From the NCBI GenBank assembly GCA_022841645.1, contig JALHRC010000010.1, positions 1 to 41,890 on the forward strand: DNA of 41,890 nt, in the 5' to 3' direction. The notes under the pieces were generated by a model, which was not told where the DNA came from, did no database searches, and was given only the letters and a program-made list of their open reading frames with translations. The position numbers and the translations under genes were made by a program. Shown here piece after piece: positions 13,574 through 34,673 of this stretch; the stretch's first letter is position 1, and each line of letters starts with the position of its first letter. The DNA comes from Minisyncoccota bacterium (GTDB lineage: Bacteria > Patescibacteriota > Minisyncoccia > Phycocordibacterales > UBA918).

Positions 13574-13646
13574 GGGCGCTTAGCTCAGTTGGTAGAGCAA
13601 CCGCTTTACACGCGGACGGTCGGGGGTTCAAGTCCCTCAGCGCCCA
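13574..13646 (+). tRNA. tRNA-Val(UAC)
   Basis: Cloverleaf with acceptor GGGCGCT/AGCGCCC, D-arm GCTCAGTTGGTAGAGC, anticodon stem CCGC/GCGG with loop TTTACAC (anticodon TAC) and T-arm GGGGGTTCAAGTCCCTC. CCA is not encoded. The terminator stem begins inside the acceptor 3' strand. Confidence 0.95.
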
Positions 13647-13686
13647 CAATAAAAAGAGCCCTTCGGGGCTTTTTTTATTGTGGGCG
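13641..13686 (+). terminator. tRNA-Val terminator hairpin overlapping the tRNA 3' end
   Basis: A 21-pair stem with a TTCG loop. Its left arm begins at the last acceptor bases of the tRNA (CGCCCA) and its right arm contains seven Ts. It is the first of three hairpins in repeat locus 1. Confidence 0.85.
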
Positions 13687-13841
13687 GTGAGCAAGCAAAT
13701 AGTTTTGCTTGCGTAGGGAATTGAACAGCGGAGCCATGTTTTCTGCTCCTTTCCTAGAGCAGAAAACAGGCGAGCTGCGGCCAGCGTTCTTAACGAACAA
13801 AGTGAGTTTAGAAAAAGCGGGCCAAGTCCCTCACCGCCCAC
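13641..13841 (+). repeat. tRNA-linked hairpin mosaic, locus 1
   Basis: After tRNA-Val come hairpin 1 (13641-13686), hairpin 2 (9-bp stem, 13691-13712), the word GGAGC and hairpin 3 (12-bp stem, 13737-13768). The stretch 13680-13720 resembles an inverted copy of the tRNA 3' half interrupted by hairpin 2. The unit ends at 13819-13841 with a direct copy resembling the tRNA 3' end (AAGTCCCTCACCGCCCAC). The order matches loci 2 and 3; hairpin 3 with its flanks is nearly identical to that of locus 3. Confidence 0.6.
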
Positions 13842-13846
13842 TTGCA

Positions 13847-14098
13847 AAAAAGAAATGACTCAGGTACTGTTGTTGTGGGCAATGGTACCGAGCTCCCAGG
13901 AGACGGGTTTCGATCCCTGCAAAACACGGCTCGACCCAACCACGCCTGCTTGCACGCAAGACGTGGTCTCTATGCTCAAAGTGCCTGACTGAAGACCTTC
14001 CCCAACCAGTGAGGTGGTGAAAACTACCTACGGGGCAGTGACAGAGACGAAAGTCGGCCCATGGGGCGGAACGCTTGCGTTCCGCCCCTCGCTTTTTT
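13847..14098 (+). ncRNA. Candidate structured RNA upstream of tRNA-Arg
   Basis: A 250-base non-coding stretch with hairpin ACCACG..CGTGGT (13939-13967, inner CTTGC-AC-GCAAG), a GAAA-capped stem AGGTGGT/ACTACCT (near 14012-14029), a T-arm-like GGGTTTCGATCCC (13906-13918) and a strong terminator. I recognise no known RNA core. A TTGCAA/TACTGT pair near 13842-13869 is a weak promoter candidate. Confidence 0.4.
14063..14098 (+). terminator. Intrinsic terminator
   Basis: Twelve-base arms GGGGCGGAACGC and its exact complement (14063-14088), followed by TCGCTTTTTT. It ends the candidate RNA upstream of tRNA-Arg(UCU). Confidence 0.85.
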
Positions 14099-14129
14099 CA
14101 TATCTAATTCCCTGCTATGCTTCCCTCAC

Positions 14130-14204
14130 GCCCCCATAGCTTAATGGATAAAGCCGCGGACTTCTAAGCCGTTGATCTAGGTTCGATTCCTGGTGGGGGC
14201 ACCA
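14130..14204 (+). tRNA. tRNA-Arg(UCU)
   Basis: Acceptor GCCCCCA/TGGGGGC, D-arm GCTTAATGGATAAAGC, anticodon loop CTTCTAA (anticodon TCT) and T-arm AGGTTCGATTCCT. The sequence continues ACCA, so CCA is encoded or supplied by the abutting repeat. Confidence 0.93.
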
Positions 14205-14430
14205 CCGCACAACCAAAAACTACCAGTCACTAGACTGGTAGTTTTTGGTTGTTGCACTGTGCCTACGCACAGTGCGTACGGTGGTGCCGGCCGGAGCGTT
14301 GCAACCAGCGCCTCCAAAGCGCTGGTTGCCGCGAGGCGGGGTCGCGAACACTTAGGAGATTTCGAACGTAGTGAAGAAATATGCTTAGTGATTCGTGACC
14401 ACACAAGTTAGTTCTTAGTGACGTGGGCCA
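14198..14430 (+). repeat. tRNA-linked hairpin mosaic, locus 2
   Basis: Starts on the tRNA-Arg 3' end. Outer stem GGCACCACCG/CGGTGGTGCC (14198-14207, 14279-14288) encloses hairpin 1 (perfect 20-bp stem, 14209-14252) and hairpin 2 (perfect 9-bp stem, 14254-14275). Then GGAGC (14293-14297), hairpin 3 (11-bp stem, 14301-14329) and the end word TTAGTGACGTGGGCCA (14415-14430). Against locus 3 the hairpin 1 and 2 stems differ at four base pairs, all compensatory. Confidence 0.75.
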
Positions 14431-14474
14431 TCAGGTAAAGGGTCCGTGTAACCGCAGTATTGCCACCCGCCCCC

Positions 14475-14948
14475 CTACAGCGCCGTGGTAGGCGCACCGT
14501 CAACCTCCGCTGGCAGAGCTGTTGGTGTACTCGTAGATGCCTGCTCCTCACTAGCCGGGAGCGATTCCGCAGGTACTGTCGATGCCGCGCCCTCAGCGTC
14601 TTCACTTTCAGTTGGCGGCGCTACCGCTCCTTGCTTCAGACGCGCGGTAATAGCAGTTGTTTCAGCCCGGCGCTTCCCGAGAAGGTCGAGCGCTCCCGCC
14701 ACCTCACCTTCGCGGTAATTGGTGGGGTCGACGCTGTTCGCAGCTGTCACATTTTCAATACCTGCTGAGCGGTATTTAAGAAACATAGATGCGGCATACC
14801 ATCCACCAACGACAAGGAGCACGAGGCAAATGCCTAGCCCCGCCACCCACTCCCGCTCGGGGTGCGTGAGTGCATGATCACCGTAGCGTCCACCACCACG
14901 GCGAGCGCTCTTGAAAATTTTTCCTAGTGACGAACGTGAAAGGCTCAT
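14475..14948 (-). CDS. Signal-anchored protein at the pilP position of the pilus cluster
   Basis: A 157-aa protein from MSLSRSSLG; longer frames start inside the preceding gene. One transmembrane helix (about 35-57, GLGICLVLLVVGGW) follows a basic cytoplasmic stretch; the C-terminal third is Ala/Ser/Thr/Glu-rich low complexity. Its ATG overlaps the TGA of the pilO-like gene (ATGA), so it is coupled to the pilus genes. The place is where pilP often sits, but I see no PilP domain. A structural role at the pilus base is only an inference. Confidence 0.6.
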   Translation of the reverse strand: MSLSRSSLGKIFKSARRGGGRYGDHALTHPEREWVAGLGICLVLLVVGGWYAASMFLKYRSAGIENVTAANSVDPTNYREGEVAGALDLLGKRRAETTAITARLKQGAVAPPTESEDAEGAASTVPAESLPASEEQASTSTPTALPAEVDGAPTTAL

Positions 14949-15469
14949 GATGAAAAAACAGTAATCTTTACCGCAGCCTCGGCCTTCCACAGCGCGCCGT
15001 CGCCTGAAAGCTGCAGGGATTCGAGGCGAGAATGATACGGAAGGTTCTCAAGCAGGCGTGAAAATTCAAGCACGCGCTCCTTGCTGCCACTAAATGAGAA
15101 ACGCATGACCACCTCGCTCTTCCCCCCAGCTGCGGCCGACACTACATCGATGAGATCATTTTCAAAAGATAGGCCGAGGGTCGGCGCCAGGGCCTCAAGT
15201 TCAGTGATGTAGAGTGTGCCGTCGAGCGATGACGAAAAGAAGGCTTGGGCAAGCGCCGCTCGATCGTCCACCGTTTCTTCGGTCAAATTTTCAATGCGCG
15301 TAATAGCGTTGGCTTTGGCGGTGCTTTCTACCACGGTCGTAAGGCTCGCTTCGAGTGCTGCTCCCTGCTCATAGAGCTGTACTAGCACATACCCCGTCGC
15401 GGCGCAGGCCGTGAGCGCACTTAGGAGCGCTAGGATAAAGTATTGTTTTGTGCGTGCAGTGAGGGTCAT
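14945..15469 (-). CDS. PilO-like type IV pilus assembly protein
   Basis: A 174-aa bitopic inner-membrane protein: short cytoplasmic N-terminus, helix at about 13-33 (FILALLSALTACAATGYVLV), coiled coil (about 35-65) and a C-terminal ferredoxin-like domain (about 80-174). This is the layout of PilO, which pairs with PilN and links the inner-membrane platform to PilM. Sequence similarity is weak, as usual for PilO, so the call rests on layout and on the pilM-pilN-pilO order. It overlaps its neighbours by four bases on both sides. Confidence 0.72.
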   Translation of the reverse strand: MTLTARTKQYFILALLSALTACAATGYVLVQLYEQGAALEASLTTVVESTAKANAITRIENLTEETVDDRAALAQAFFSSSLDGTLYITELEALAPTLGLSFENDLIDVVSAAAGGKSEVVMRFSFSGSKERVLEFSRLLENLPYHSRLESLQLSGDGALWKAEAAVKITVFSS

Positions 15470-16017
15470 GGTGTAGGGGTACTCGACGCAATGGTGAGGG
15501 TGATGGAAAATTCAATGTCACGATCGCGGGAGAAATTCGACAGCGGCAGATCTGCATCCACAATCAGGGGATGCTCCTCCAGGGCACGGTGGAATTCAAC
15601 GAGGCTCAAGCGGGTGGCTGCCTGACCTTCAATCTTTACCGCTCCTACTACATCCCCCGCTCGTGGTATAGCATACGACGTAACAGCAATTTGCGAACTT
15701 GGTGTCGCTTCGTCTACCACTTCCACGAGCTCAGTGAGTCGTGGTAGTCGTGCCATCGAGGAAAGGAGCCGGGCCTGCTCGCTCGCGACCACGAGTGGCT
15801 TTGATGAGGCAGCGCCATCACCCAGTCGCTCAAGGGCTTCTTTAGCCATCGCACTATGAAGTGACACTTGTGAGGTGACGAGCACGTACGCTGGCAGAAG
15901 AAAAACACCGACGGATACTGCTGCAACAACGAACAGCCACAACCACACCGTAACAACACGCACCCAATACTCACTTTTGATGCGACGATGGGCACTCGGT
16001 GGTACAAGGTTAATCAT
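15466..16017 (-). CDS. PilN-like type IV pilus assembly protein
   Basis: A 183-aa bitopic protein that starts MINLVPPSAHRR, matching the N-terminal INLLP-type motif of PilN that docks in the groove of PilM. A helix spans about 23-48, then a coiled coil and a C-terminal ferredoxin-like domain. It begins 6 bases after the pilM stop and overlaps the pilO-like gene by four bases. Together the three would form the inner-membrane alignment complex of a type IV pilus, used by these bacteria for attachment or DNA uptake. Confidence 0.8.
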   Translation of the reverse strand: MINLVPPSAHRRIKSEYWVRVVTVWLWLFVVAAVSVGVFLLPAYVLVTSQVSLHSAMAKEALERLGDGAASSKPLVVASEQARLLSSMARLPRLTELVEVVDEATPSSQIAVTSYAIPRAGDVVGAVKIEGQAATRLSLVEFHRALEEHPLIVDADLPLSNFSRDRDIEFSITLTIASSTPTP

Positions 16018-16023
16018 ACAATT

Positions 16024-17118
16024 TTATATGTTGTGCGCGAGCGATAGTCCGACAGCGGTGGCATACCCGTACGAGAAACGCTTCTCAATCGGCGGTACTG
16101 TTTCATCAAACGATGCCACGTTGGCCCATACGTTAGCTCGCTCGCACGGGACACCCAACATTTCTGTCAGATACTCTGGAAAGCCTTTGAGATTCACGCT
16201 ACCGCCACACAGTATCACCGCACCAATGCGTCGCGACGGGTGGGTGTTCTCTTTCAGATGCCAATACTGCATGCGGGCAGCTAATTCGTCCTTCACTACC
16301 GAGATAGTCCCAATAAGGGCGTCATGTACACGTGAATCATCGGCACCTCGGATAAGACCTTGGGTGTTTTTGATTTCCGTAAGCTCGGCTTCCGCCCGTT
16401 CGCCGAGCACCTTGCGCATCACTTGTGAAAGGCTCCCGCCACCAATGTCGATGGTGGAGGTGTAGAGAAGTAGGCCATCGGTAACGATCCCCACCCCAGT
16501 ACGTGTCTTGCCAAAGTCGACCACCATCACCGTTCCGGTAGATTTTGTGGGTACCACCGCCCGCGCCATCGCCTGTGCTTCTACCTCAAAGGAAAGGGGC
16601 ACCAGGCCAGCCGCCACACAAGCTTCGTGGTACTTGGTAAGTGTGTCGCGAGCGTAGGCAGCAACAACGACTCTCTTTTCACCCTCACCCTTACCGGTTG
16701 TCGGCAACACGGCGTAGTCAAAGTACACATCCCGCGACGGAATCGGTACGTTTTCTTCTAAACGAAATTCTAGCGTATTGCGAATCTCACGCTGGGGCAC
16801 ATCGCGTTTGAGCTCGGTCTCAAAGAGATAGGCTCGCTCTTCAGGCAAGGACACCCGCACAAATTCTGCGCGGGTCTTTTGTTTAAATTCACGTAGTACC
16901 GCCGAGAGCTGAGTAATATCGTTTACCTCTCCACGACTAAGCACACCGGAGGGGATGTCGATGTCACCCCAGGAGAGTAGTTTGCGCCCCTTGCCCCGGC
17001 GTCCCGGAGAGAGCGTGACGTACTTTATCGAAGTATCAGAAATATCTACCCCGACGCTGGGCAAAGTAAGATAGCGGGGCGGCGGCACGCGCCGCACAAC
17101 ATGAGAAAGGACACCCAT
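16024..17118 (-). CDS. pilM: PilM, actin-like type IV pilus assembly ATPase
   Basis: A 364-aa cytoplasmic actin-fold protein from MGVLSHVV. The first phosphate loop is GVDISDTSIKYVTL (about 23-36), the second VMVVDFGKTRTGVGIV (about 195-210), and GAVILCGGSVNLKGFPEYL (about 300-318) is the adenosine motif. It binds the N-terminus of PilN. Frames starting further upstream show no family sequence; AAGGG lies about 11 bases before this ATG, with TATACT at 17137-17142 as probable -10 box. First gene of pilM-N-O. Confidence 0.9.
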   Translation of the reverse strand: MGVLSHVVRRVPPPRYLTLPSVGVDISDTSIKYVTLSPGRRGKGRKLLSWGDIDIPSGVLSRGEVNDITQLSAVLREFKQKTRAEFVRVSLPEERAYLFETELKRDVPQREIRNTLEFRLEENVPIPSRDVYFDYAVLPTTGKGEGEKRVVVAAYARDTLTKYHEACVAAGLVPLSFEVEAQAMARAVVPTKSTGTVMVVDFGKTRTGVGIVTDGLLLYTSTIDIGGGSLSQVMRKVLGERAEAELTEIKNTQGLIRGADDSRVHDALIGTISVVKDELAARMQYWHLKENTHPSRRIGAVILCGGSVNLKGFPEYLTEMLGVPCERANVWANVASFDETVPPIEKRFSYGYATAVGLSLAHNI

Positions 17119-17136
17119 ACAAAGTATTGTGCCCTT

Positions 17137-17142
17137 AGTATA
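17137..17142 (-). promoter_or_regulatory. Probable -10 box of the pilM operon
   Basis: TATACT on the minus strand, 18 bases before the pilM ATG, with AAGGG between them as ribosome-binding site. No good -35 box was found. Confidence 0.4.
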
Positions 17143-17197
17143 CGTCCCCACTGGTCCCAATTGATGGACCAACTCACATCTTTGCGGTGGTTGAAAA

Positions 17198-17530
17198 TTA
17201 ACGCACCTTAGTACCAGACGAAAGTACGCTACCCGGATGCAGCAAGGCAAACGCCTCACCATCACCAGCAGCGAGAATCATCCCTTGGCTCTCAAGACCG
17301 CGAATGGTCCGAGGTGCGAGATTGGTAAGAAACGGACACTGCTTCCCCACCAGTTCCTGTGGGTCGGAAAAAAATGTCCTGATGCCTGAAACTATTTGCC
17401 GGGGGGTCTCTTCACCTACATCAACAGTGAGTTTGAGGAGCTTGTCGGCGTCAGGTACCACTTCCACCGCAGTGATGGTTCCGATTTTTATCTCCAGGGC
17501 GGCAAACTGCTCGTACGAAATGGTATCCAT
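17198..17530 (-). CDS. Stand-alone tRNA-binding domain protein (MetRS beta/Arc1p type)
   Basis: A 110-aa OB-fold protein of the EMAP II/Trbp111 kind. It aligns with the C-terminal appendix of methionyl-tRNA synthetase: FAALEIKIGTITAVEVVPDADKLLKLTVDVG, then RQIVSGIRTFF, LAPRTIRGLESQGMILAA and a final GTKVR. Such domains bind tRNA non-specifically and raise synthetase affinity; whether it partners MetRS here cannot be seen. Nine bases separate it from the ruvX stop, so the two are probably co-transcribed. Confidence 0.88.
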   Translation of the reverse strand: MDTISYEQFAALEIKIGTITAVEVVPDADKLLKLTVDVGEETPRQIVSGIRTFFSDPQELVGKQCPFLTNLAPRTIRGLESQGMILAAGDGEAFALLHPGSVLSSGTKVR

Positions 17531-17539
17531 ATGAAAATA

Positions 17540-17920
17540 TTAACGAGTGCGTTCAAGGTAGCTATTGAGCAAAATAGCAGCAGCGGCAGCATCGGTGGCC
17601 TGGTTGCGTCCTTGGAGACGAAGTGCCGCTTGGGTGGAGTAGTGCTCTGGCTCAAGGTGGATTGGTAGTCCCACTGCGAGTGTAAGATCACCGATCAACT
17701 CTTGAATCGCACCCATCACCGCATTTGGTTTTCCGTCATTCCCGATAGACTGCCCGATCACGATCTCACCGACCTTTTTTTCTTCAATGATACTGGTAAT
17801 GGTTGAAAGAAGCTTCCCGTCATTTGGTATCACCATAAGAGGGAAACCCATCATGCCGTCTTCATCAGTAAGGGCGAGCCCTACCCGTTTGGTGCCAAAA
17901 TCAATGCCGAGAATGCGCAT
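17540..17920 (-). CDS. ruvX: RuvX/YqgF family Holliday-junction resolvase or pre-16S nuclease
   Basis: A 126-aa RNase H-fold protein. MRILGIDFGTKRVGLALTD at the N-terminus gives the first catalytic Asp; EIVIGQSIGNDGKP (about 55-68) and a late ATDAAAAAILLNSYL (about 105-120) give the remaining acidic positions. In E. coli YqgF matures the 16S rRNA 5' end, while other members cut branched DNA. The frame extends upstream, but the family N-terminus begins at this ATG. TATACT at 17941-17946 could serve as -10 box. Confidence 0.92.
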   Translation of the reverse strand: MRILGIDFGTKRVGLALTDEDGMMGFPLMVIPNDGKLLSTITSIIEEKKVGEIVIGQSIGNDGKPNAVMGAIQELIGDLTLAVGLPIHLEPEHYSTQAALRLQGRNQATDAAAAAILLNSYLERTR

Positions 17921-17941
17921 GGGAAGAGGATAGCATGAGAG

Positions 17942-17980
17942 TATAAAAAGCAGAACGGCCCGCAGCAGAGCTGCGGGCCG
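17942..17980 (-). terminator. Intrinsic terminator after the 165-aa membrane protein gene
   Basis: Ten-bp stem CGGCCCGCAG/CTGCGGGCCG (17956-17980) followed on the minus strand by TTCTGCTTTTTA. Confidence 0.75.
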
Positions 17981-18002
17981 CAAAACCTTCTCCACCATCG
18001 GC

Positions 18003-18500
18003 TCATCGCAACCACCTGAACCACACGAGTCGCCACGCCAGCCAGAAGGGATACCATCCATGGTCAGTAATGGCCCGAAAGCAACGGCGGAGGTATGGAC
18101 CCGGTGACCACACAAACGCCGCGAAAAGCATCGCAGCGACTGCGGTCAGACATGACAGTGACCGCACTGCGTGTAGGTGCCGTGCAGTGTCATGCCACCC
18201 CACCCCATTCATCCAGTGCGCGCTGATATTCACTCCGATCGGCAACATGAGTGCAGCCAGCAGCCACCAGAAGTAGGGGCTTACCCTAGTCGTATGTGTG
18301 GCCGGTGGTGCCTCAACCGGCACGCTTCCAAGACACACCAGTATCGGTATACAGACACCCGACAACATCCACACAACCAGGAAGGCGTGCCCACTCCACC
18401 CCGCTAAAAAGGTGTAGGCAAGCGCCAGTGGTGATATGAGGAGTAGCCAAGCCATTGCAACGAGGGCAATCGCCACCCACACCCTGATAGCGTTGGACAT
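18003..18500 (-). CDS. Four-helix membrane protein, unknown function
   Basis: A 165-aa integral membrane protein with hydrophobic helices at about 6-34, 37-60, 72-92 and 112-132, and an aromatic, arginine-rich C-terminus (WYPFWLAWRLVWFRWLR). A good ribosome-binding site, AAGGAA, lies about 7 bases before the ATG. It has its own terminator and is separated from ruvX. I recognise no family; tryptophan content is very high. Confidence 0.65.
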   Translation of the reverse strand: MSNAIRVWVAIALVAMAWLLLISPLALAYTFLAGWSGHAFLVVWMLSGVCIPILVCLGSVPVEAPPATHTTRVSPYFWWLLAALMLPIGVNISAHWMNGVGWHDTARHLHAVRSLSCLTAVAAMLFAAFVWSPGPYLRRCFRAITDHGWYPFWLAWRLVWFRWLR

Positions 18501-18565
18501 GTTTTGGTTCCTTGTGCTTCCTTAGGTACCCTACGGCACGTAGCTAGAGCTGTCAAAGCTGTTGT

Positions 18566-18592
18566 GGTGCCAGCAGGAATCGAACTCTACTA
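18566..18592 (-). pseudogene. tRNA 3'-end remnant
   Basis: Reads on the minus strand as a T-loop plus acceptor end, AGTTCGATTCCTGCTGGCACCA, with CCA. No matching 5' acceptor half or D-arm is found upstream, so it is a fragment rather than a tRNA gene. Confidence 0.5.
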
Positions 18593-18629
18593 GTTCAGTA
18601 GTCGGCTCGTTGTCAGCGATACATCCTTG

Positions 18630-18874
18630 TGGCCCACGTCACTAATTATAATTATTCACCCCAGGAGTACTTCCAACGGCAGCGCCGAAGGGGCGCGCTG
18701 CGCTCTAATTCTAATAAGTGCGTGTCGGCCTCGGCTCACCTGTTTTCTGCTCCAGGAAAGGAGCAGAAAACATGGCTCCGCCTAGCACCACCGCCCGCAC
18801 CATGCGCAGGCATGGTGCTACAACTAAAAACCACCAGTCAAATTGACTGGTGGTTTTTAGTTGTACGGTGGTGC
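18630..18874 (-). repeat. tRNA-linked hairpin mosaic, locus 3
   Basis: Minus-strand copy of the locus 2 unit. A partial tRNA 3' end (18873-18892) leads into outer stem GCACCACCG/CGGTGGTGC (18785-18793, 18866-18874) enclosing hairpin 1 (20-bp stem, 18820-18864) and hairpin 2 (9-bp stem, 18797-18818). Then come GGAGC, hairpin 3 (13-bp stem, 18741-18772) and the same 16-base end word (18630-18645). Hairpin 3 is unrelated in sequence to that of locus 2 but nearly identical to that of locus 1. Confidence 0.75.
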
Positions 18875-19068
18875 TCCCACCAGGAATCGGTCACCCCTGC
18901 GGACAATTTGTTCGCTTTTAGCTCCAAATCGTCGCGCAGTCGCGACCCCGCCCCACCGCCGCCCGTCCTTCGCTTCGCTACGTCGGGTCCCCGCCGGTGG
19001 GGTTCGATTCCTGTCGGAAGCCAAACGGCAACGGCGCCGACACTAATAGTGTGGGGGCCGGCCGGTTG

Positions 19069-19140
19069 TGCTCCCACCAGGAATCGAACCTGGATCGCAG
19101 ATACCGCAAACCTGCATTCTATCCATTAAACTATGGGAGC
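19069..19140 (-). tRNA. tRNA-Arg(GCG)
   Basis: Acceptor GCTCCCA/TGGGAGC, weak D-stem GTTT/GAAT, anticodon stem CAGGT/ATCTG with loop TTGCGGT (anticodon GCG), T-arm CCAGGTTCGATTCCTGG. CCA is not encoded. An unmodified G34 reading CGC/CGU is uncommon in bacteria, which usually use ACG plus TadA. Confidence 0.85.
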
Positions 19141-25168: not shown

Positions 25169-26753
25169 TAACCCCATTACTGAAGAACTGTTTGAATCAA
25201 TGAAGAAAGACCGGGTGGTGCGTCAGCAGATTATGGGTGGAAGCTTTAACTACTTCTTCCATTTCTATTTTGCTCATTACGTGCAGTTTCCAACGGCAAA
25301 CTTTCAGCGTGACTTGATTGGCAAGCTAGAGAACGAACCTGATGAGAATTTGTTTGTGGTGGCGTTTCGTGGCTCAGGTAAGTCAACGATTGTGACCACT
25401 GCGTTTCCGATCTGGTCAATTCTTGGTCAACAGCAAAAGAAGTTTGTGATTATTTTCTGTCAGACTCGTGTGCAAGCCAAACAACACATGATGAATATTC
25501 GCAACGAACTGGAGAATAATCAGCTCCTTAAGAACGACCTTGGGCCGTTTAGTGAGGAATCTGATGAGTGGGGTTCGCACTCCATTGTGTTCTCGAACAC
25601 TAAAGCCCGTATCACCGTTGCTTCATCTGAGCAAAGTATTCGAGGATTGCGTCATCATCAGCACCGACCGGACTTATTCATTTGTGACGACGTGGAGGAT
25701 GTGGCTTCTACCAAAACCCGTGAGGGTCGTAATAAAACATATCAATGGCTTACTGGTGACGTGATTCCAGCTGGTGACCAAAGTACTCGACTGATTGTAA
25801 TCGGAAACCTGCTACACGAAGACTCACTCCTCATGCGACTACGTGACCGAGTTATGAAACAAGAGTTAGACGGTACGTTCATGTCTTGTGCACTGGTTAC
25901 GAAAGATAATAAATCTGCCTGGCCAGGGAAGTTTCCGACTCTAACATCAATCGAAAAAGAGCGTAAAAAGATTGGTGACGAGATTGCGTGGCAACGAGAA
26001 TATCTCCTCAATATTATTCCTGATGATGACCAAGTTATTCACCCTGAGTGGCTGTGCTATTACTATGCTGACAAAATACCGCCAGAATCGAGCAAAGCAT
26101 ATCGGGCTACCTATACTGGTGTTGATCTCGCCATCTCACAAAAAGACACAGCCGACTGTACCGCCATGGTCACAGCACGAATATTTGGTCGCAACGAAGC
26201 ACTACGTATCTTTTGCGAACCTCACTTAGTCAATAAGCGACTGACGTTCCCTCAGCAAGTGGAACTAATGAAGCATCACAGTAGCACCCACTTAACCGGT
26301 CGCAATGATGAGTTAATTGTTGAAAGTGTTGCTTACCAAGATGCCTTGCCACAAATGCTCGACTCACAGGGAGTAAAGGCAATCTCAGTAAAGCCTAAAA
26401 ATGATAAGCGCACACGACTTGCACTGACATCCTCTATGATTCAGAAAGGCACCATCTTGTTTCCAGATAAAGGCTGTGAACGTCTCATCGAGCAGATGGT
26501 AGGGTTTGGTGTTGAAAAGCATGACGATCTGGCTGATGCTTTTTCACTTCTGATTCACAAAATAGTTGAAGAATTTACCAGAGAAAGTACATTCCTGATT
26601 GCGTTCTTCGGATCTGGACCAATCGAAGACAGCACCTGCTGGTACCACGATTATCGTGATGTTCTGCAAGACGTTGATTGTTTAACGCCAGCCGCTAAAG
26701 AACGGATTCAAACAGTAGATACCCCTGAAAGTCGAAGACGACGACGTCACTAG
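25152..26753 (+). CDS. terL: Phage terminase large subunit
   Basis: A 533-aa packaging motor and nuclease, counted from the ATG at 25152 (a second at 25158 is equally good); the longer frame lies within the small-subunit gene. Walker A FRGSGKST (72-79), Walker B LFICDDVED (175-183) and a coupling-type IVIGN near 218 form the ATPase. The C-terminal RNase H-like nuclease shows TGVDLAIS and the late HDDLADAF acidic pair. It appears intact. No portal or capsid gene follows; instead it ends in a CTAG interlocked with the stop of the opposing Ltp-like gene. Confidence 0.92.
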   Translation: MIMKNNNPITEELFESMKKDRVVRQQIMGGSFNYFFHFYFAHYVQFPTANFQRDLIGKLENEPDENLFVVAFRGSGKSTIVTTAFPIWSILGQQQKKFVIIFCQTRVQAKQHMMNIRNELENNQLLKNDLGPFSEESDEWGSHSIVFSNTKARITVASSEQSIRGLRHHQHRPDLFICDDVEDVASTKTREGRNKTYQWLTGDVIPAGDQSTRLIVIGNLLHEDSLLMRLRDRVMKQELDGTFMSCALVTKDNKSAWPGKFPTLTSIEKERKKIGDEIAWQREYLLNIIPDDDQVIHPEWLCYYYADKIPPESSKAYRATYTGVDLAISQKDTADCTAMVTARIFGRNEALRIFCEPHLVNKRLTFPQQVELMKHHSSTHLTGRNDELIVESVAYQDALPQMLDSQGVKAISVKPKNDKRTRLALTSSMIQKGTILFPDKGCERLIEQMVGFGVEKHDDLADAFSLLIHKIVEEFTRESTFLIAFFGSGPIEDSTCWYHDYRDVLQDVDCLTPAAKERIQTVDTPESRRRRRH

Positions 26754-27484
26754 TATCCGACAGCTGTTGCTCCGTATTGAGCTTGTGCGGTAGTGAATCC
26801 TTCAAACTTTAACTGTTCAATGAGGCCGCTTCGAGAGAAATTACTGTATTCAAGATATGCTTTAGCTGACAAAGCAGCTTGCTCGTTCCAGTCTACTGTG
26901 ATGTTTTCTACACCATACTCAGCCTCAGTGCGTGAGTACCCCTCAAACTCTAATTGTTCGATGAGACCTGATTTTGAAAAAGCTCTAAAGTCGATGTAGT
27001 TTTGTGCGGCTCGGATCGCTTGTTTTTCACCTAGAGTGGGTTGGTTTTGGGTTACTACTAGTGTTTCGACAACTGGCTCAGGGTTTGTTTCAACTACAAC
27101 ATCAGCGGATTCTTGTACGACCGTTTCTGGTTCATCTACATTCTCACTTGATTCAGTATCCGCTTCTGATTCTGCAACCACTTCTTGAGGCGTATTTTCT
27201 ACAACTGGATTACTAGTAGAAGTTGACTCAGTATCCATGGTCGCGCCAGCAATACCAAAGAGAACAATTACTAATACGACTTTCACACCACCTGAGAGTG
27301 ACAGATTAAATTTTTCTTTCAGCATTCGGTTCACTGGCGGCAACAACACTAGTGCTAGTAAGAGAAATAATATGCCGGGCACTGGCTCAGTGAAGAGTAG
27401 TCCGACTCCAGCGATACCGACTAATACGCCAAGTATCCACCCGACTATTAAACCTAGAGTGATTTTAGTTTCTTTTGTTTCCAT
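26750..27484 (-). CDS. Membrane-anchored Ltp-like repeat protein (putative superinfection exclusion)
   Basis: A 244-aa protein with three N-terminal hydrophobic segments (about 10-28, 33-50, 66-82), a Glu/Val/Ser/Thr-rich linker (~85-150) and two tandem Ltp repeats (about 153-196 and 199-242) with the shared core FSKSGLIEQLEFEG / FSRSGLIEQLKFEG and trailing AEYG / AQYG. Ltp-domain lipoproteins of Streptococcus prophages block DNA injection by related phages. Here a transmembrane anchor replaces the lipobox. An exclusion role is inferred from domain and phage context; Ltp repeats also occur in other surface proteins. Confidence 0.72.
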   Translation of the reverse strand: METKETKITLGLIVGWILGVLVGIAGVGLLFTEPVPGILFLLLALVLLPPVNRMLKEKFNLSLSGGVKVVLVIVLFGIAGATMDTESTSTSNPVVENTPQEVVAESEADTESSENVDEPETVVQESADVVVETNPEPVVETLVVTQNQPTLGEKQAIRAAQNYIDFRAFSKSGLIEQLEFEGYSRTEAEYGVENITVDWNEQAALSAKAYLEYSNFSRSGLIEQLKFEGFTTAQAQYGATAVGY

Positions 27485-27829
27485 AATTTCGCGTGGGTTT
27501 TAATTATAAAAATCTTGAGGAACACAAATGGCCACACAAGACCGACGACAGCGACCTTTCGGAAGCTATCCCATATCCTTTCGGATATGAACCCACGCGA
27601 GTAAGTGCCGGCTTATGTGGCCGTTTCTACTCGCGTGGGATTTGTGAACCATACCAACGACAGAGTCGTTGGGTTAGGTGTTGTGATGAACATAATAGCT
27701 CAAACTTTGCTATTACGCACGTCATAATATCGCCAAAATATGCAGTTGCTAAGGGCGAGATGCGAGTATGCGATGTATCGGTTGTTCTGCATAGCTATGC
27801 ATTTCGTGCGATTCTGTCATTAATTACTT
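27485..27829. promoter_or_regulatory. Hairpin-rich region before the integrase; candidate attachment or control site
   Basis: No convincing gene. It holds hairpins CATATCC-TTTC-GGATATG (27572-27589), CCCACGCGAGTA/TACTCGCGTGGG (27592-27603, 27628-27639) and CCAACGAC-AGA-GTCGTTGG (27654-27672), and the perfect palindrome TGCATAGCTATGCA (27788-27801). CGCGTGGG occurs three times in either orientation, including next to the Ltp gene start (27491-27500). Large serine integrases usually have an attachment site beside their gene, so this is the best candidate. Confidence 0.45.
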
Positions 27830-29152
27830 ATGGAAACCGCACAAATATCTGCCAAGTTAGGACAGCAAATACAACCACCAACTGCACCCGTTAAATATCT
27901 TCTCTATGCTCGCAAGAGTACTGAATCAGAAGAACGACAAGTATTGAGTATTGACTCTCAAGTCAAAGAGATGATGGAAATGGCAGCTCGTGAGAATCTC
28001 GATATTGTTGAAGTACGACGTGAGGCACACTCTGCGAAAGCGTCAGGTCAACGACCAGTTTTTCGAGAAATTCTTGAAGATATTAGACAAGGTAAATTCA
28101 ACGGCATTATCGTATGGCATCCAGACCGTTTGAGTCGTAACGCTGGAGACCTTGGTGAGTTAGTTGACCTCATGGATCAAAAGCTACTGGTCGAAATCAG
28201 AGCTAATGGGCAAACATTCACCAACAACCCGAGTGAAAAGTTTCTCTTAATGATTCTCTGTTCGCAAGCGAAGCTTGAGAACGATAACAAGAGTATCAAT
28301 GTGAAGCGTGGACTTAAGACGCGGGTGGAGATGGGGTTGTGGCCAGCTCCAGCACCTACCGGATATGTAAAGCAAAAACGCATGGATCGGAAGTGTGAGA
28401 CGTTAATTGACCCAGAACGTGCACCAGTCATTAAGAAAATGTTTGAGAAGGTGGCATATGAAAAGTGGTCAGGTCGTAAGCTGTACAACTGGCTTCGCTT
28501 TGAACTTAACTTCACAGCATTACCAAGCAAGAAACCACTCAGTCTCGGTAACATCTATCGACTGCTCGAAAACCACTTCTACTACGGTGTCTTCGAGTAC
28601 CCTCGTAATAGTGGTAATTGGTATCAAGGTAAACACGAACCGCTGATCACGAAAGAGTTGTTTGACTTAGTACAAGAACAACTTAAAGGTAACGAATTAA
28701 AGACACGGCAGGGAAAAGAGTTTGCTTTTACCAAGTTGATGACGTGTGGATTATGCGGTTCAGGTATTAGTGCTGACGAGAAATACAAAAAGCTTAAGAA
28801 TGGAAAAATTAATACACACGTCTATTACGGCTGTACCAAGGCGAGAGATAAACACTGCAAGTGCGGATATATAAACGAAACTGAACTTATAGAGCAATTA
28901 CAAGCACTGATTGATACAACTACATTCAGTGAAACAAGTGTTTTAAAGAAAGTGCGAGAAGAAGTAACAAGGTATAAGAAGTTTAGCAAGTCACTCCTTG
29001 GTGAGAATATTAAGATTACAGTAAGTGATATTGACGTGAAAGACTACGTTAAGTTTTTACTTAAAGACGGCACGTTTGAAGAAAAACGTGCCGTCCTTTC
29101 CTGTGTTACTTCACAGATTGTATTGAGTAAGAAGAAGGTGTCTTTGAGGTGA
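27830..29152 (+). CDS. Large serine recombinase (integrase)
   Basis: A 440-aa site-specific recombinase. The resolvase domain carries YARKST with catalytic S30 and the arginine block DRLSR near residue 100. A Recombinase domain follows (about 165-285: APTGYVKQK, IYRLLENHFYYGVFEY), then a zinc ribbon with CGLCGSG and CTKARDKHCKCG (about 305-350) and a short coiled-coil end. It would integrate or excise the element with simple attachment sites. It is somewhat short for the class (450-550 aa) but has all domains. Confidence 0.94.
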   Translation: METAQISAKLGQQIQPPTAPVKYLLYARKSTESEERQVLSIDSQVKEMMEMAARENLDIVEVRREAHSAKASGQRPVFREILEDIRQGKFNGIIVWHPDRLSRNAGDLGELVDLMDQKLLVEIRANGQTFTNNPSEKFLLMILCSQAKLENDNKSINVKRGLKTRVEMGLWPAPAPTGYVKQKRMDRKCETLIDPERAPVIKKMFEKVAYEKWSGRKLYNWLRFELNFTALPSKKPLSLGNIYRLLENHFYYGVFEYPRNSGNWYQGKHEPLITKELFDLVQEQLKGNELKTRQGKEFAFTKLMTCGLCGSGISADEKYKKLKNGKINTHVYYGCTKARDKHCKCGYINETELIEQLQALIDTTTFSETSVLKKVREEVTRYKKFSKSLLGENIKITVSDIDVKDYVKFLLKDGTFEEKRAVLSCVTSQIVLSKKKVSLR

Positions 29153-32708: not shown

Positions 32709-33122
32709 ATGAACGAACAAAATAATACTTTCAATGAATTCTGTGCTTGTCTTCTAGACGACAAAGGGGCGCGCGAGCAAACCCCAACTTGGGTACGAGA
32801 ACAACTTGAGAACGGGCTTGAACTGAGCGATTTACTCGAACAAATAAAAAATGTAGCTGAAGAGTATCCACATTGGGGGCTACACGCCGTGGCGGCCATT
32901 GTGGATTTGGGTGACGATCCAGACAGTCCAATAAATCTCCATGATCACGAAAACACGAGTGATGACGCTGACAACTACGATCCACAAGACAATATGCACG
33001 AGGAACTTGAACAAACCGCTAATTATCTCTGGGCATTGTTACAAGAAAATAATAACGAGGCCTTCGACACGTCTACTCACCAAGAACTCTACGACAATAT
33101 CATTCAGGCGCTGGCTCGTTAA
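32709..33122 (+). CDS. Acidic hypothetical protein upstream of selO
   Basis: A 137-aa soluble, strongly acidic protein (DDPDSPINLHDHENTSDDADNYDPQDN in the middle, given here only as a region near 72-98) with helical ends. It lies 3 bases before selO and is certainly co-transcribed with it. I recognise no family; a SelO partner or substrate is a reasonable but untested idea. Confidence 0.65.
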   Translation: MNEQNNTFNEFCACLLDDKGAREQTPTWVREQLENGLELSDLLEQIKNVAEEYPHWGLHAVAAIVDLGDDPDSPINLHDHENTSDDADNYDPQDNMHEELEQTANYLWALLQENNNEAFDTSTHQELYDNIIQALAR

Positions 33123-33125
33123 ACT

Positions 33126-34673
33126 ATGCCAGAGCTTACTATCAAACCAACTTTCATAAAACAACTAACAGGAGATCCTGAAACAGAGAACTACCCTCGG
33201 CCAGTTGCGGAGTTTTTCACGTATGTACATCCAGCACACCCCGGCGACCCGACGCTTCATCATCATATTTCTGAACTCAGTGATGAGCTGCGGCTTGACT
33301 CCAATGACTCATCCTTTCTAGATTATGTGAGTGGATTGTCAGCATTACCAGATTATCGACCTTGGGCCATGAACTACGCCGGTCATCAGTTTGGTAACTG
33401 GGCTGGTCAGCTTGGTGATGGTCGAGCAATAAATATTGCTGAACTTGAAGGCAAGACACAATTTTGGACCGTACAGCTAAAAGGAGCCGGGTTAACCCCC
33501 TACTCACGCGGGGCAGATGGTAAAGCAGTACTTCGTTCCTCTATTCGGGAATATCTCTGCGCTGAAGCGATGCATCATTTAGGAATTCCGACCACTCGTT
33601 CTTTAGCACTCGTCACAACTGGAGACAAAGTTTTGCGAGACGTACTCAACGATGGACACCCAGCACACGAACCAGGCGCGATTGTAACAAGAGCAGCGGA
33701 GAGTTTTATACGTTTTGGTAACTTTGAGCTGTTTGCAAGTCGTGGTGATAAGGAGCGATTGCAGGAACTACTGGACTTTACCATCACTACTCATTTTCCA
33801 AACCTGACCAATTGTAGTGACAATGTCTATCTTGCGCTTTATGAAGAAGTGGTAAACCGAACAATAGAACTGATGGTTGAATGGGAACGGGTTGGTTTTG
33901 TTCATGGTGTCATGAATACCGATAACATGTCTATACTAGGTTTGACAATTGATTACGGCCCGTACGGCTGGCTAGATGCCTTCGATCCAGACTGGACGCC
34001 GAATACTACCGATAACCAATTCCGTCGCTATCGGTTCGGAAATCAGTCAGATATTGCCTACTGGAATCTCCGACAACTTGGACGAGCTTTGGCTCTAGCT
34101 ATTGGTGATGCAGACAGTGTTCAGACCACCTTACATAAATATCACGAACGTTTTGCCACCGATCGAGAAACCATGTATCGAAACAAGCTTGGTCTAGAAA
34201 CCACACAAGATACTGACGCCGAGCTAATCGCGTCGGTGCTCACCTTACTTGAAGAACAACCACTTGATATGACCAGATTCTGGCGACATCTATCTCAATT
34301 CGATGAAACATCTCCAGGGAATCATTTATCACTTATCACCGATGATGCTTACACTGTAGTGTCCGAAACAGATAAAACTAAGTGGCTTGACTGGCTAGAT
34401 ACATACGCTGCAAGATTACGTACAGAGGCCATCTCTCAGTCTGAAAGAGCGGCTCTAATGAATAAAGTCAACCCGAAATATGTCTTTCGTAATTACATTG
34501 CTAGTCAAGTAATCGAAGCGGCCGAAAACGATGACTATACTTTGTTTCGAACTGTCTATGAGTTACTAAAACATCCATATGATGAACAGACTGAACACGA
34601 GATATGGTTTCAAAAACAACCTGCGTGGGCCAGAGATAGAATCGGTTGTTCGCAGCTATCATGTAGTTCTTAA
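33126..34673 (+). CDS. selO: SelO/YdiU family protein adenylyltransferase
   Basis: A 515-aa pseudokinase-fold enzyme that transfers AMP to Ser, Thr or Tyr of proteins, known from E. coli to respond to oxidative stress. Hallmarks: YAGHQFGNWAGQLGDGRA near 80, QLKGAGLTPYSRGADGKAVLRSSIREYLC near 117-145, the HGVMNTDNMSILG metal-binding segment and NPKYVFRNY near 445. It ends CSQLSCSS; the C-terminal Cys is the position of selenocysteine in animal SelO. Complete length. Follows the msr operon, fitting a redox-stress context. Confidence 0.95.
   Translation: MPELTIKPTFIKQLTGDPETENYPRPVAEFFTYVHPAHPGDPTLHHHISELSDELRLDSNDSSFLDYVSGLSALPDYRPWAMNYAGHQFGNWAGQLGDGRAINIAELEGKTQFWTVQLKGAGLTPYSRGADGKAVLRSSIREYLCAEAMHHLGIPTTRSLALVTTGDKVLRDVLNDGHPAHEPGAIVTRAAESFIRFGNFELFASRGDKERLQELLDFTITTHFPNLTNCSDNVYLALYEEVVNRTIELMVEWERVGFVHGVMNTDNMSILGLTIDYGPYGWLDAFDPDWTPNTTDNQFRRYRFGNQSDIAYWNLRQLGRALALAIGDADSVQTTLHKYHERFATDRETMYRNKLGLETTQDTDAELIASVLTLLEEQPLDMTRFWRHLSQFDETSPGNHLSLITDDAYTVVSETDKTKWLDWLDTYAARLRTEAISQSERAALMNKVNPKYVFRNYIASQVIEAAENDDYTLFRTVYELLKHPYDEQTEHEIWFQKQPAWARDRIGCSQLSCSS

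What the first reader, a model, noticed from the sequence alone, without database searches (positions are those of the whole stretch)
13641..18874. Family of tRNA-linked three-hairpin elements with compensatory changes
Three loci (13641-13841, 14198-14430, 18630-18874 in reverse) share one architecture starting at a tRNA 3' end: hairpin 1, hairpin 2, GGAGC, hairpin 3. Loci 2 and 3 add an outer stem GCACCACCG/CGGTGGTGC around hairpins 1 and 2 and the end word TTAGTGACGTGGGCCA, giving units of 233 and 245 bases. In the 20-bp and 9-bp stems of loci 2 and 3, four pairs differ and every change is compensated on the other arm. This implies selection on a fold, or palindrome-specific copying. I know of no described element with this layout; it may be a new tRNA-targeting miniature mobile element or a tRNA 3' processing/termination RNA.
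Basis: partly seen in the sequence, partly recalled or inferred. Interest (0 to 1): 0.88.

Follow-up and report, generated by a model that had tools for sequence, protein, structure and literature searches.

The report
Gene-less mini-elements that replace gene ends
Ultra-small bacteria of the Patescibacteria carry a family of roughly 130-250-letter DNA elements, not described in the libraries searched here, that insert at one exact spot in the 3' end of tRNA genes and a few essential protein genes, restore the gene with a copy they bring along, and share a strongly conserved folded core.

Summary
The hairpins are real, and the four differing stem pairs of loci 2 and 3 are all compensated. They belong to a dispersed family: 28 core matches in this genome, matches in 82 of 99 genomes of a relatives sample, and weaker matches in other Patescibacteria classes. 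Rfam has no such family.

Architecture: functional gene end (A), terminator hairpin, inverted copy of A (A') with hairpin H2, conserved core H3+H4, then a displaced gene end. In tRNAs the junction is single-base precise: GTGACC|RANTCC against the intact GGTTC|RANTCC. Targets are most tRNAs, tmRNA, ftsZ, rpsI, rplL and rplB.

At ftsZ, 13 genus members are empty and 15 occupied. Functional and displaced ends differ by 68 synonymous and 1 non-synonymous codons, so the displaced piece is an old gene end. Two genomes with ftsZ 78% identical share an element 97% identical: horizontal transfer. These are site-specific integrative mini-elements that work like tDNA islands but carry no genes and no integrase.

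Selection acts on a sense-strand fold: G.T exceeds A.C in stems; a T.T mismatch and a bulged A are conserved. The proposed mechanism (folded single-stranded attachment site used by a host or helper recombinase) is inference.

The parts
13630..13647 (+). Element 1: functional tRNA-Val(TAC) end (A), from T-loop position 57 to the end of the gene
13648..13679 (+). Element 1: terminator hairpin (T)
13680..13726 (+). Element 1: inverted copy of the tRNA end (A'), 13680-13691 and 13715-13726, split by hairpin H2 (13692-13711)
13727..13823 (+). Element 1: conserved core, H3 (13727-13776) and H4 (13779-13823)
   Evidence: model match C10:13726-13823, E 4.7e-9
13824..13841 (+). Element 1: displaced tRNA-Val end (AAGTCCCTCACCGCCCAC)
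14185..14207 (+). Element 2: functional tRNA-Arg(TCT) end (A) with 3' trailer
14209..14288 (+). Element 2: T (14209-14252), H2 (14254-14275), A' (14279-14288)
14289..14400 (+). Element 2: core, H3 (14289-14337) and H4 (14340-14400)
   Evidence: model match E 2.2e-25 (a seed sequence of the model)
14414..14429 (+).
   Evidence: reading by inspection
19063..19085 (-). Array at tRNA-Arg(GCG): functional end (A)
   Evidence: (L067)
18889..19022 (-). First element of that array: A' (19001-19022), variant H3, H4 (18889-18947)
   Evidence: model match 18889-18985, E 0.004
18866..18888 (-).
18785..18865 (-). Second element (locus 3): T (18819-18865), H2 (18797-18818), A' (18785-18793)
18631..18783 (-). 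Second element: core, H3 (18733-18782) and an H4 enlarged by an inserted stretch, ending at 18631
   Evidence: model match E 2.1e-13
18564..18581 (-). Second displaced tRNA-Arg-like end
   Evidence: (D1, I9)

Best explanation
A family of gene-less, horizontally moving integrative mini-elements. Each carries its own copy of a target gene's 3' end (A), usually a terminator hairpin, an inverted copy of that end (A'), and a conserved two-hairpin core (H3+H4). Insertion occurs at one exact position: after the C of GTTC in the T-loop of tRNAs, and just before the GTN CCN codons of ftsZ. The element's A then becomes the working gene end and the old end is pushed downstream as a displaced fragment; repeated insertion builds arrays. 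SHOWN: architecture, precise junction, empty and occupied sites, displaced former gene ends, horizontal transfer, selection on the sense-strand fold. INFERRED (about 0.35): the mobile form is a small circle or single strand in which A:A' folds into a double-stranded attachment site, with H3/H4 as a protein recognition structure, recombined into the gene by a tyrosine recombinase supplied by the host (the single Xer-type enzyme) or by a helper, much as CTXphi and integron cassettes use folded single strands.
For: Cognate direct and inverted gene-end copies. Junction GTGACC|RANTCC in most of 32 elements. Perfect displaced copies in distant relatives L215 and L217. ftsZ: 13 empty and 15 occupied genomes; 68 synonymous against 1 non-synonymous codon differences, about 54 non-synonymous expected by chance; rplL, rpsI and rplB show the same kind of displaced end. 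G035/G002: ftsZ 78% identical, element 97%; A' in G002 fits the element side and not the host side of the junction. A' follows the functional end 18:1. Covariation: 27 of 40 pairs on the structure-free alignment, 39 of 40 on 135 sequences. G.T 205 against A.C 38, conserved T.T mismatch and bulged A. 71 of 102 tip triloops are GNA, no GNRA tetraloop. One Xer-type recombinase in nearly every genome.
Against: No excision product or circle was seen. No dedicated recombinase was found near the cores; Xer number does not track element number and two genomes with elements show no tyrosine recombinase (one of them is an incomplete assembly). Cores within one genome are no more alike than between genomes, so recent activity inside a genome is not visible. 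Some elements lack a recognisable displaced end (element 2). A GNA tip is a hint of DNA folding, not proof.
Confidence: 0.78

Rival explanations
1. A host RNA module: a structured 3' UTR or trailer RNA that helps 3' processing, termination or stability of tRNAs and highly expressed mRNAs, spread mostly by vertical descent.
For: Same-strand position behind highly expressed genes, an included terminator, and selection on the sense-strand fold with G.U pairs.
Against: Displaced gene ends with synonymous divergence, a single-base junction, empty sites in about half of the genus at ftsZ, transfer between genomes, and a genus mate without any core match (G007). A host function could have been gained secondarily.
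Confidence: 0.1
2. The stem compensations come from template switching within palindromes during replication (palindrome correction), with no selection on a fold.
For: A' equals the host gene at 18 of 20 variable third positions upstream of the ftsZ junction, as correction from the nearby gene end would give.
Against: Correction would remove the conserved T.T mismatch, the bulged A, the GGAG/CGA internal loop and the conserved G.T pair, which persist across families. It also predicts no G.T excess on one strand. It may still act on A'.
Confidence: 0.12
3. Decayed ends of large integrative islands or prophages: only the right attachment region is left after deletion of the cargo.
For: Restored gene plus displaced fragment is the island signature (PMC4383910). 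L127 has 1.4 kb with a 361-aa ORF between tandem copies.
Against: Nearly all copies have the same small size and order (distance from tRNA to core about 40-90 nt in most). No integrase lies near the cores. No viral contig has the core. The fold is under selection over a whole order.
Confidence: 0.2
4. Spread by uptake of DNA and homologous recombination at gene ends, with no site-specific enzyme at present; the exact junction is inherited from an ancient insertion in each target.
For: No dedicated recombinase and conserved target genes. Patescibacteria commonly encode DNA-uptake machinery (own knowledge, not tested). Cores resemble each other slightly more by target than by genome (0.664 against 0.616).
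Against: Explains the transfer of an existing insertion between relatives, but not its origin at one exact base in dozens of different tRNAs. In G035/G002 the sequence after the element does not align, so no long flanking homology came with it.
Confidence: 0.2

Closest known systems
tDNA genomic islands and other integrative elements that restore their target gene (Islander type, PMC4383910)
   Same: The target gene end is restored by the element and the old end remains as a displaced fragment; tRNA and tmRNA targets; arrays.
   Different: About 130-250 bp instead of size peaks at 13.6 and 39.9 kbp; no genes, no integrase; one conserved folded core shared by elements with many different targets; an inverted copy of the target end is carried.
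Integron gene cassettes / attC sites (PMC4792948)
   Same: Mobile unit with a conserved imperfect hairpin, little sequence conservation in stems, an extrahelical base and strand polarity.
   Different: No RYYYAAC/GTTRRRY boxes (0 of 107), no integron integrase in the genome (best score 69.7 against cut-off 265), no integron platform: each element goes to a gene end.
CTXphi-type elements that exploit Xer recombinases with a folded single-stranded attP
   Same: Possible use of the host Xer enzyme and of a stem formed by folding (inference).
   Different: Not at dif; no phage genes; no match in viral contigs.
REP/BIME, MITE and other dispersed bacterial palindromes
   Same: Short, non-coding, dispersed, hairpin-rich.
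   Different: These restore and displace specific gene ends at a fixed base; no link to the Y1 transposase loci.

Membership tests
tDNA integrative islands | Restored target gene plus displaced 3' fragment at the other end | tested here: met
tDNA integrative islands | Element encodes its own tyrosine integrase | tested here: not met
   elements are too short for one; no integrase-like ORF near the cores in the fetched loci; usually one Xer-type gene per genome
Integron cassette attC | RYYYAAC and GTTRRRY boxes at the ends of the hairpin | tested here: not met
   0 of 107 elements with both
Integron cassette attC | Imperfect hairpin with extrahelical bases recognised as a folded single strand | tested here: inconclusive
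   imperfect hairpin, conserved bulged A and strand polarity are present; recognition cannot be tested here
Integron | Integron integrase in the same genome | tested here: not met
   only an Xer-like recombinase in G000; TIGR02249 69.7 bits against cut-off 265
REP elements with Y1 (RAYT) transposase | Copies flank the Y1 transposase gene | tested here: not met
   both Y1 loci of G000 searched with an H4 pattern, none found
Rfam families | Match at the gathering score | tested here: not met
Xer-exploiting elements (CTXphi type) | Integration catalysed by host XerC/XerD | not testable with these tools
   needs an assay; only the presence of one Xer-like gene per genome is known
Phage or phage satellite | Core present in viral contigs | tested here: not met
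   0 exact-pattern matches in 2.9 million IMG/VR contigs

The most novel reading that the evidence does not exclude
A separate kind of mobile element: a gene-less folded single strand of about 200 nt that is the whole element, recombined into gene ends by a general recombinase that reads structure, with the target set only by the A:A' stem it carries, so that it can be re-addressed to new gene ends.
Probability: 0.3. Interest if true: 0.95.

Novelty: new variant of a known kind. Interest (0 to 1): 0.85.

Why it matters
It adds a very small and abundant integrating element to genomes usually seen as streamlined. It renews the 3' ends of essential genes such as ftsZ and rpsI horizontally, and joins features of tDNA islands, integrons and Xer-using phages in one folded design. 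If the target depends only on the carried A:A' stem, it would be a compact system for placing DNA at a chosen gene end, in bacteria that have almost no genetics.

Tried and rejected
Known RNA family: rejected; the LOOT RNA in the window is a different structure. Retro-copying by the genome's reverse transcriptase: it sits next to an Avd-like ORF, as in diversity-generating retroelements, and no link to the elements was seen. Y1/RAYT mobilisation: flanks lack the core. De novo copying of A' at each insertion by fold-back priming: dropped, because A' agrees with the functional end and displaced ends are old native ends. Bursts within one genome: cores in one genome are not more alike. Codon choice that forms hairpins inside ftsZ ends: seen in only a few of 15, not general. 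Phage link: none. The first MAFFT alignment A1 put H4 out of register and was replaced by A2. Paper searches found no description; most subscription papers and all preprints are outside that library.

Full report
Observation. The window (contig C10 of genome G000, 1.12 Mb, 56 contigs) holds the three hairpin loci as described, with folds about 10 SD better than shuffles. Loci 2 and 3 differ in four stem pairs, all compensated. A DNA search of the genome gave further copies, mostly just behind tRNA genes.

Anatomy. Reading the 3' flanks of all 43 tRNA matches gave one plan: functional gene end A; terminator T; inverted copy A', often split by hairpin H2 (9-bp stem with a 4-base loop in the copies read by eye); core H3+H4; displaced copy of A. 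Cognate direct and inverted copies stand out against the ends of the other 42 tRNAs. H3 has a GGAG/CGA internal loop. H4 has a T.T mismatch, a bulged A and a small tip hairpin.

Family and fold. A covariance model of H3+H4 (nine sequences, MAFFT alignment, structure drawn by me) finds 28 core matches in G000 at E <= 0.01, and matches in 82 of 99 genomes of a relatives sample; genus mate G007 has none. In a phylum sample 28 of 380 genomes match, mainly in the same order, with weaker matches in other classes; L215 (same order) and L217 (outside the class) have the clean architecture. An exact-pattern scan of GTDB contigs returned 76 stretches, from records named Patescibacteria or its subgroups (Kaiserbacteria, Campbellbacteria, Nomurabacteria, Paceibacterota and others) or unnamed MAGs; one is a complete chromosome, CP011215.1, so assembly error is not the cause. 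On 135 distinct matches, 39 of 40 pairs have changes on both sides, with 1100 compensated cells against 299 +/- 19 shuffled. Caveats: that alignment was fitted to the model, and part of the loci were picked with an H4 pattern. The first alignment, made without structure, gives the same picture (27 of 40 pairs).

Which strand. In the stems G.T outnumbers A.C 205 to 38, or 101 to 38 without the one conserved G.T pair, so the sense strand is the one that must fold. Of 102 triloop tips 71 are GNA, and none is a GNRA tetraloop; most tips are closed by C-G. Loops of the GCGAAGC type are known as unusually stable in DNA (own knowledge; papers listed were not read). That hints at single-stranded DNA but is not proof. 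The sense strand of element 1 folds better as DNA than the antisense strand.

Targets. 63 of 103 elements with flanks lie within 250 nt downstream of a tRNA on the same strand, and most tRNA species occur. Others follow ftsZ, rpsI, rplL, rplB and tmRNA (the protein genes were identified by me from their C-terminal sequences).

Junction. In most of 32 usable elements the core ends GTGACC and the displaced piece starts RANTCC, while the functional copy reads GGTTC|RANTCC: one exact base in the T-loop, whichever the tRNA. At sites where functional and displaced ends differ, A' agrees with the functional end 18 times and with the displaced end once.

Insertion and transfer. The ftsZ 3' end in 30 genus genomes shows 13 without and 15 with elements, some nested; two contigs end too early to judge. 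Functional and displaced ftsZ ends (12 codons, 10 genomes) differ by 68 synonymous and 1 non-synonymous codons; random changes would give about 54 non-synonymous. So the displaced piece is a former working end, and the present end came with the element. G035 and G002 have ftsZ only 78% identical but elements 96.9% identical over 130 nt, and the sequence after the element does not align. In G002 A' disagrees with the host just upstream of the junction and agrees downstream, as expected of a recent arrival. Elsewhere A' fits the host upstream too (18 of 20 third positions in all), so the pairing is restored with time by selection or by local template copying; which of the two is not resolved.

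Mechanism. Shown: site-specific, horizontally moving, gene-end-restoring elements without genes and with a selected sense-strand fold. Inferred: a circle T-A'-X-A in which A:A' is a double-stranded attachment site made by folding, recombined by a tyrosine recombinase from the host or a helper. Against this step: each genome has usually one Xer-like recombinase whose number does not track element number, and two genomes show none; no integrase lies near the cores in the fetched loci; no viral contig holds the core. L127 has a 1.4-kb stretch with a 361-aa ORF without Pfam or NCBIfam match between two tandem copies, perhaps a cargo-bearing form.

Comparison. Restoration plus displaced fragment is the signature of tDNA islands (PMC4383910), but those have size peaks at 13.6 and 39.9 kbp and use an integrase. 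attC sites are recognised as folded single strands with extrahelical bases, and CTXphi gives a precedent for borrowing XerCD with a stem formed by the phage strand (PMC4792948). The attC boxes are absent here. The element works like an integrative island, perhaps with an integron-like folded site, but is not a member of either as defined.

Noticed in passing
window 27547-27680 (-): LOOT RNA (RF03000), 71 bits, between two divergent ORFs; a structured RNA of unknown function in the same window.
   Followed up: no
window 13855-14100: Intergenic stretch between tRNA-Val element 1 and tRNA-Arg that looks like a further non-coding RNA (ends with a strong GGGGCGGAACG hairpin and a T run); no Rfam match.
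   Followed up: no
L127:5572-6657 (-): 361-aa ORF without Pfam or NCBIfam match, between two tandem copies of the tRNA-Asp element; possible cargo.
   Followed up: partly
L064 (G000:C7, about 43900-44300): A tRNA whose anticodon region seems to be interrupted by an intron-like insertion, followed by an array of elements; reading by eye.
   Followed up: no
L070 (G000:C8, about 32950-33402): Partial 5' copy of tRNA-Glu(CTC) and an element lie upstream of the intact tRNA-Glu, an unusual arrangement in which the intact gene comes last.
   Followed up: no
L100 (G000:C11, about 26700-28000): Reverse transcriptase with an upstream Avd-like 112-aa ORF, so probably a diversity-generating retroelement.
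   Followed up: partly
window loci 1 and 3 and G000 contigs C17, C3, C18, C26: Nearly the same H3 sequence (ATGTTTTCTGCTCC...) is joined to different H4s and different targets, which suggests exchange of modules between elements.
   Followed up: partly
G000:C4:62252-62850, C7:23103, C21:12421, window 18889-19022: A second sub-type of element with a longer A' (no H2) and a GGGACCC-type H3; the core model scores it weakly in most copies.
   Followed up: partly
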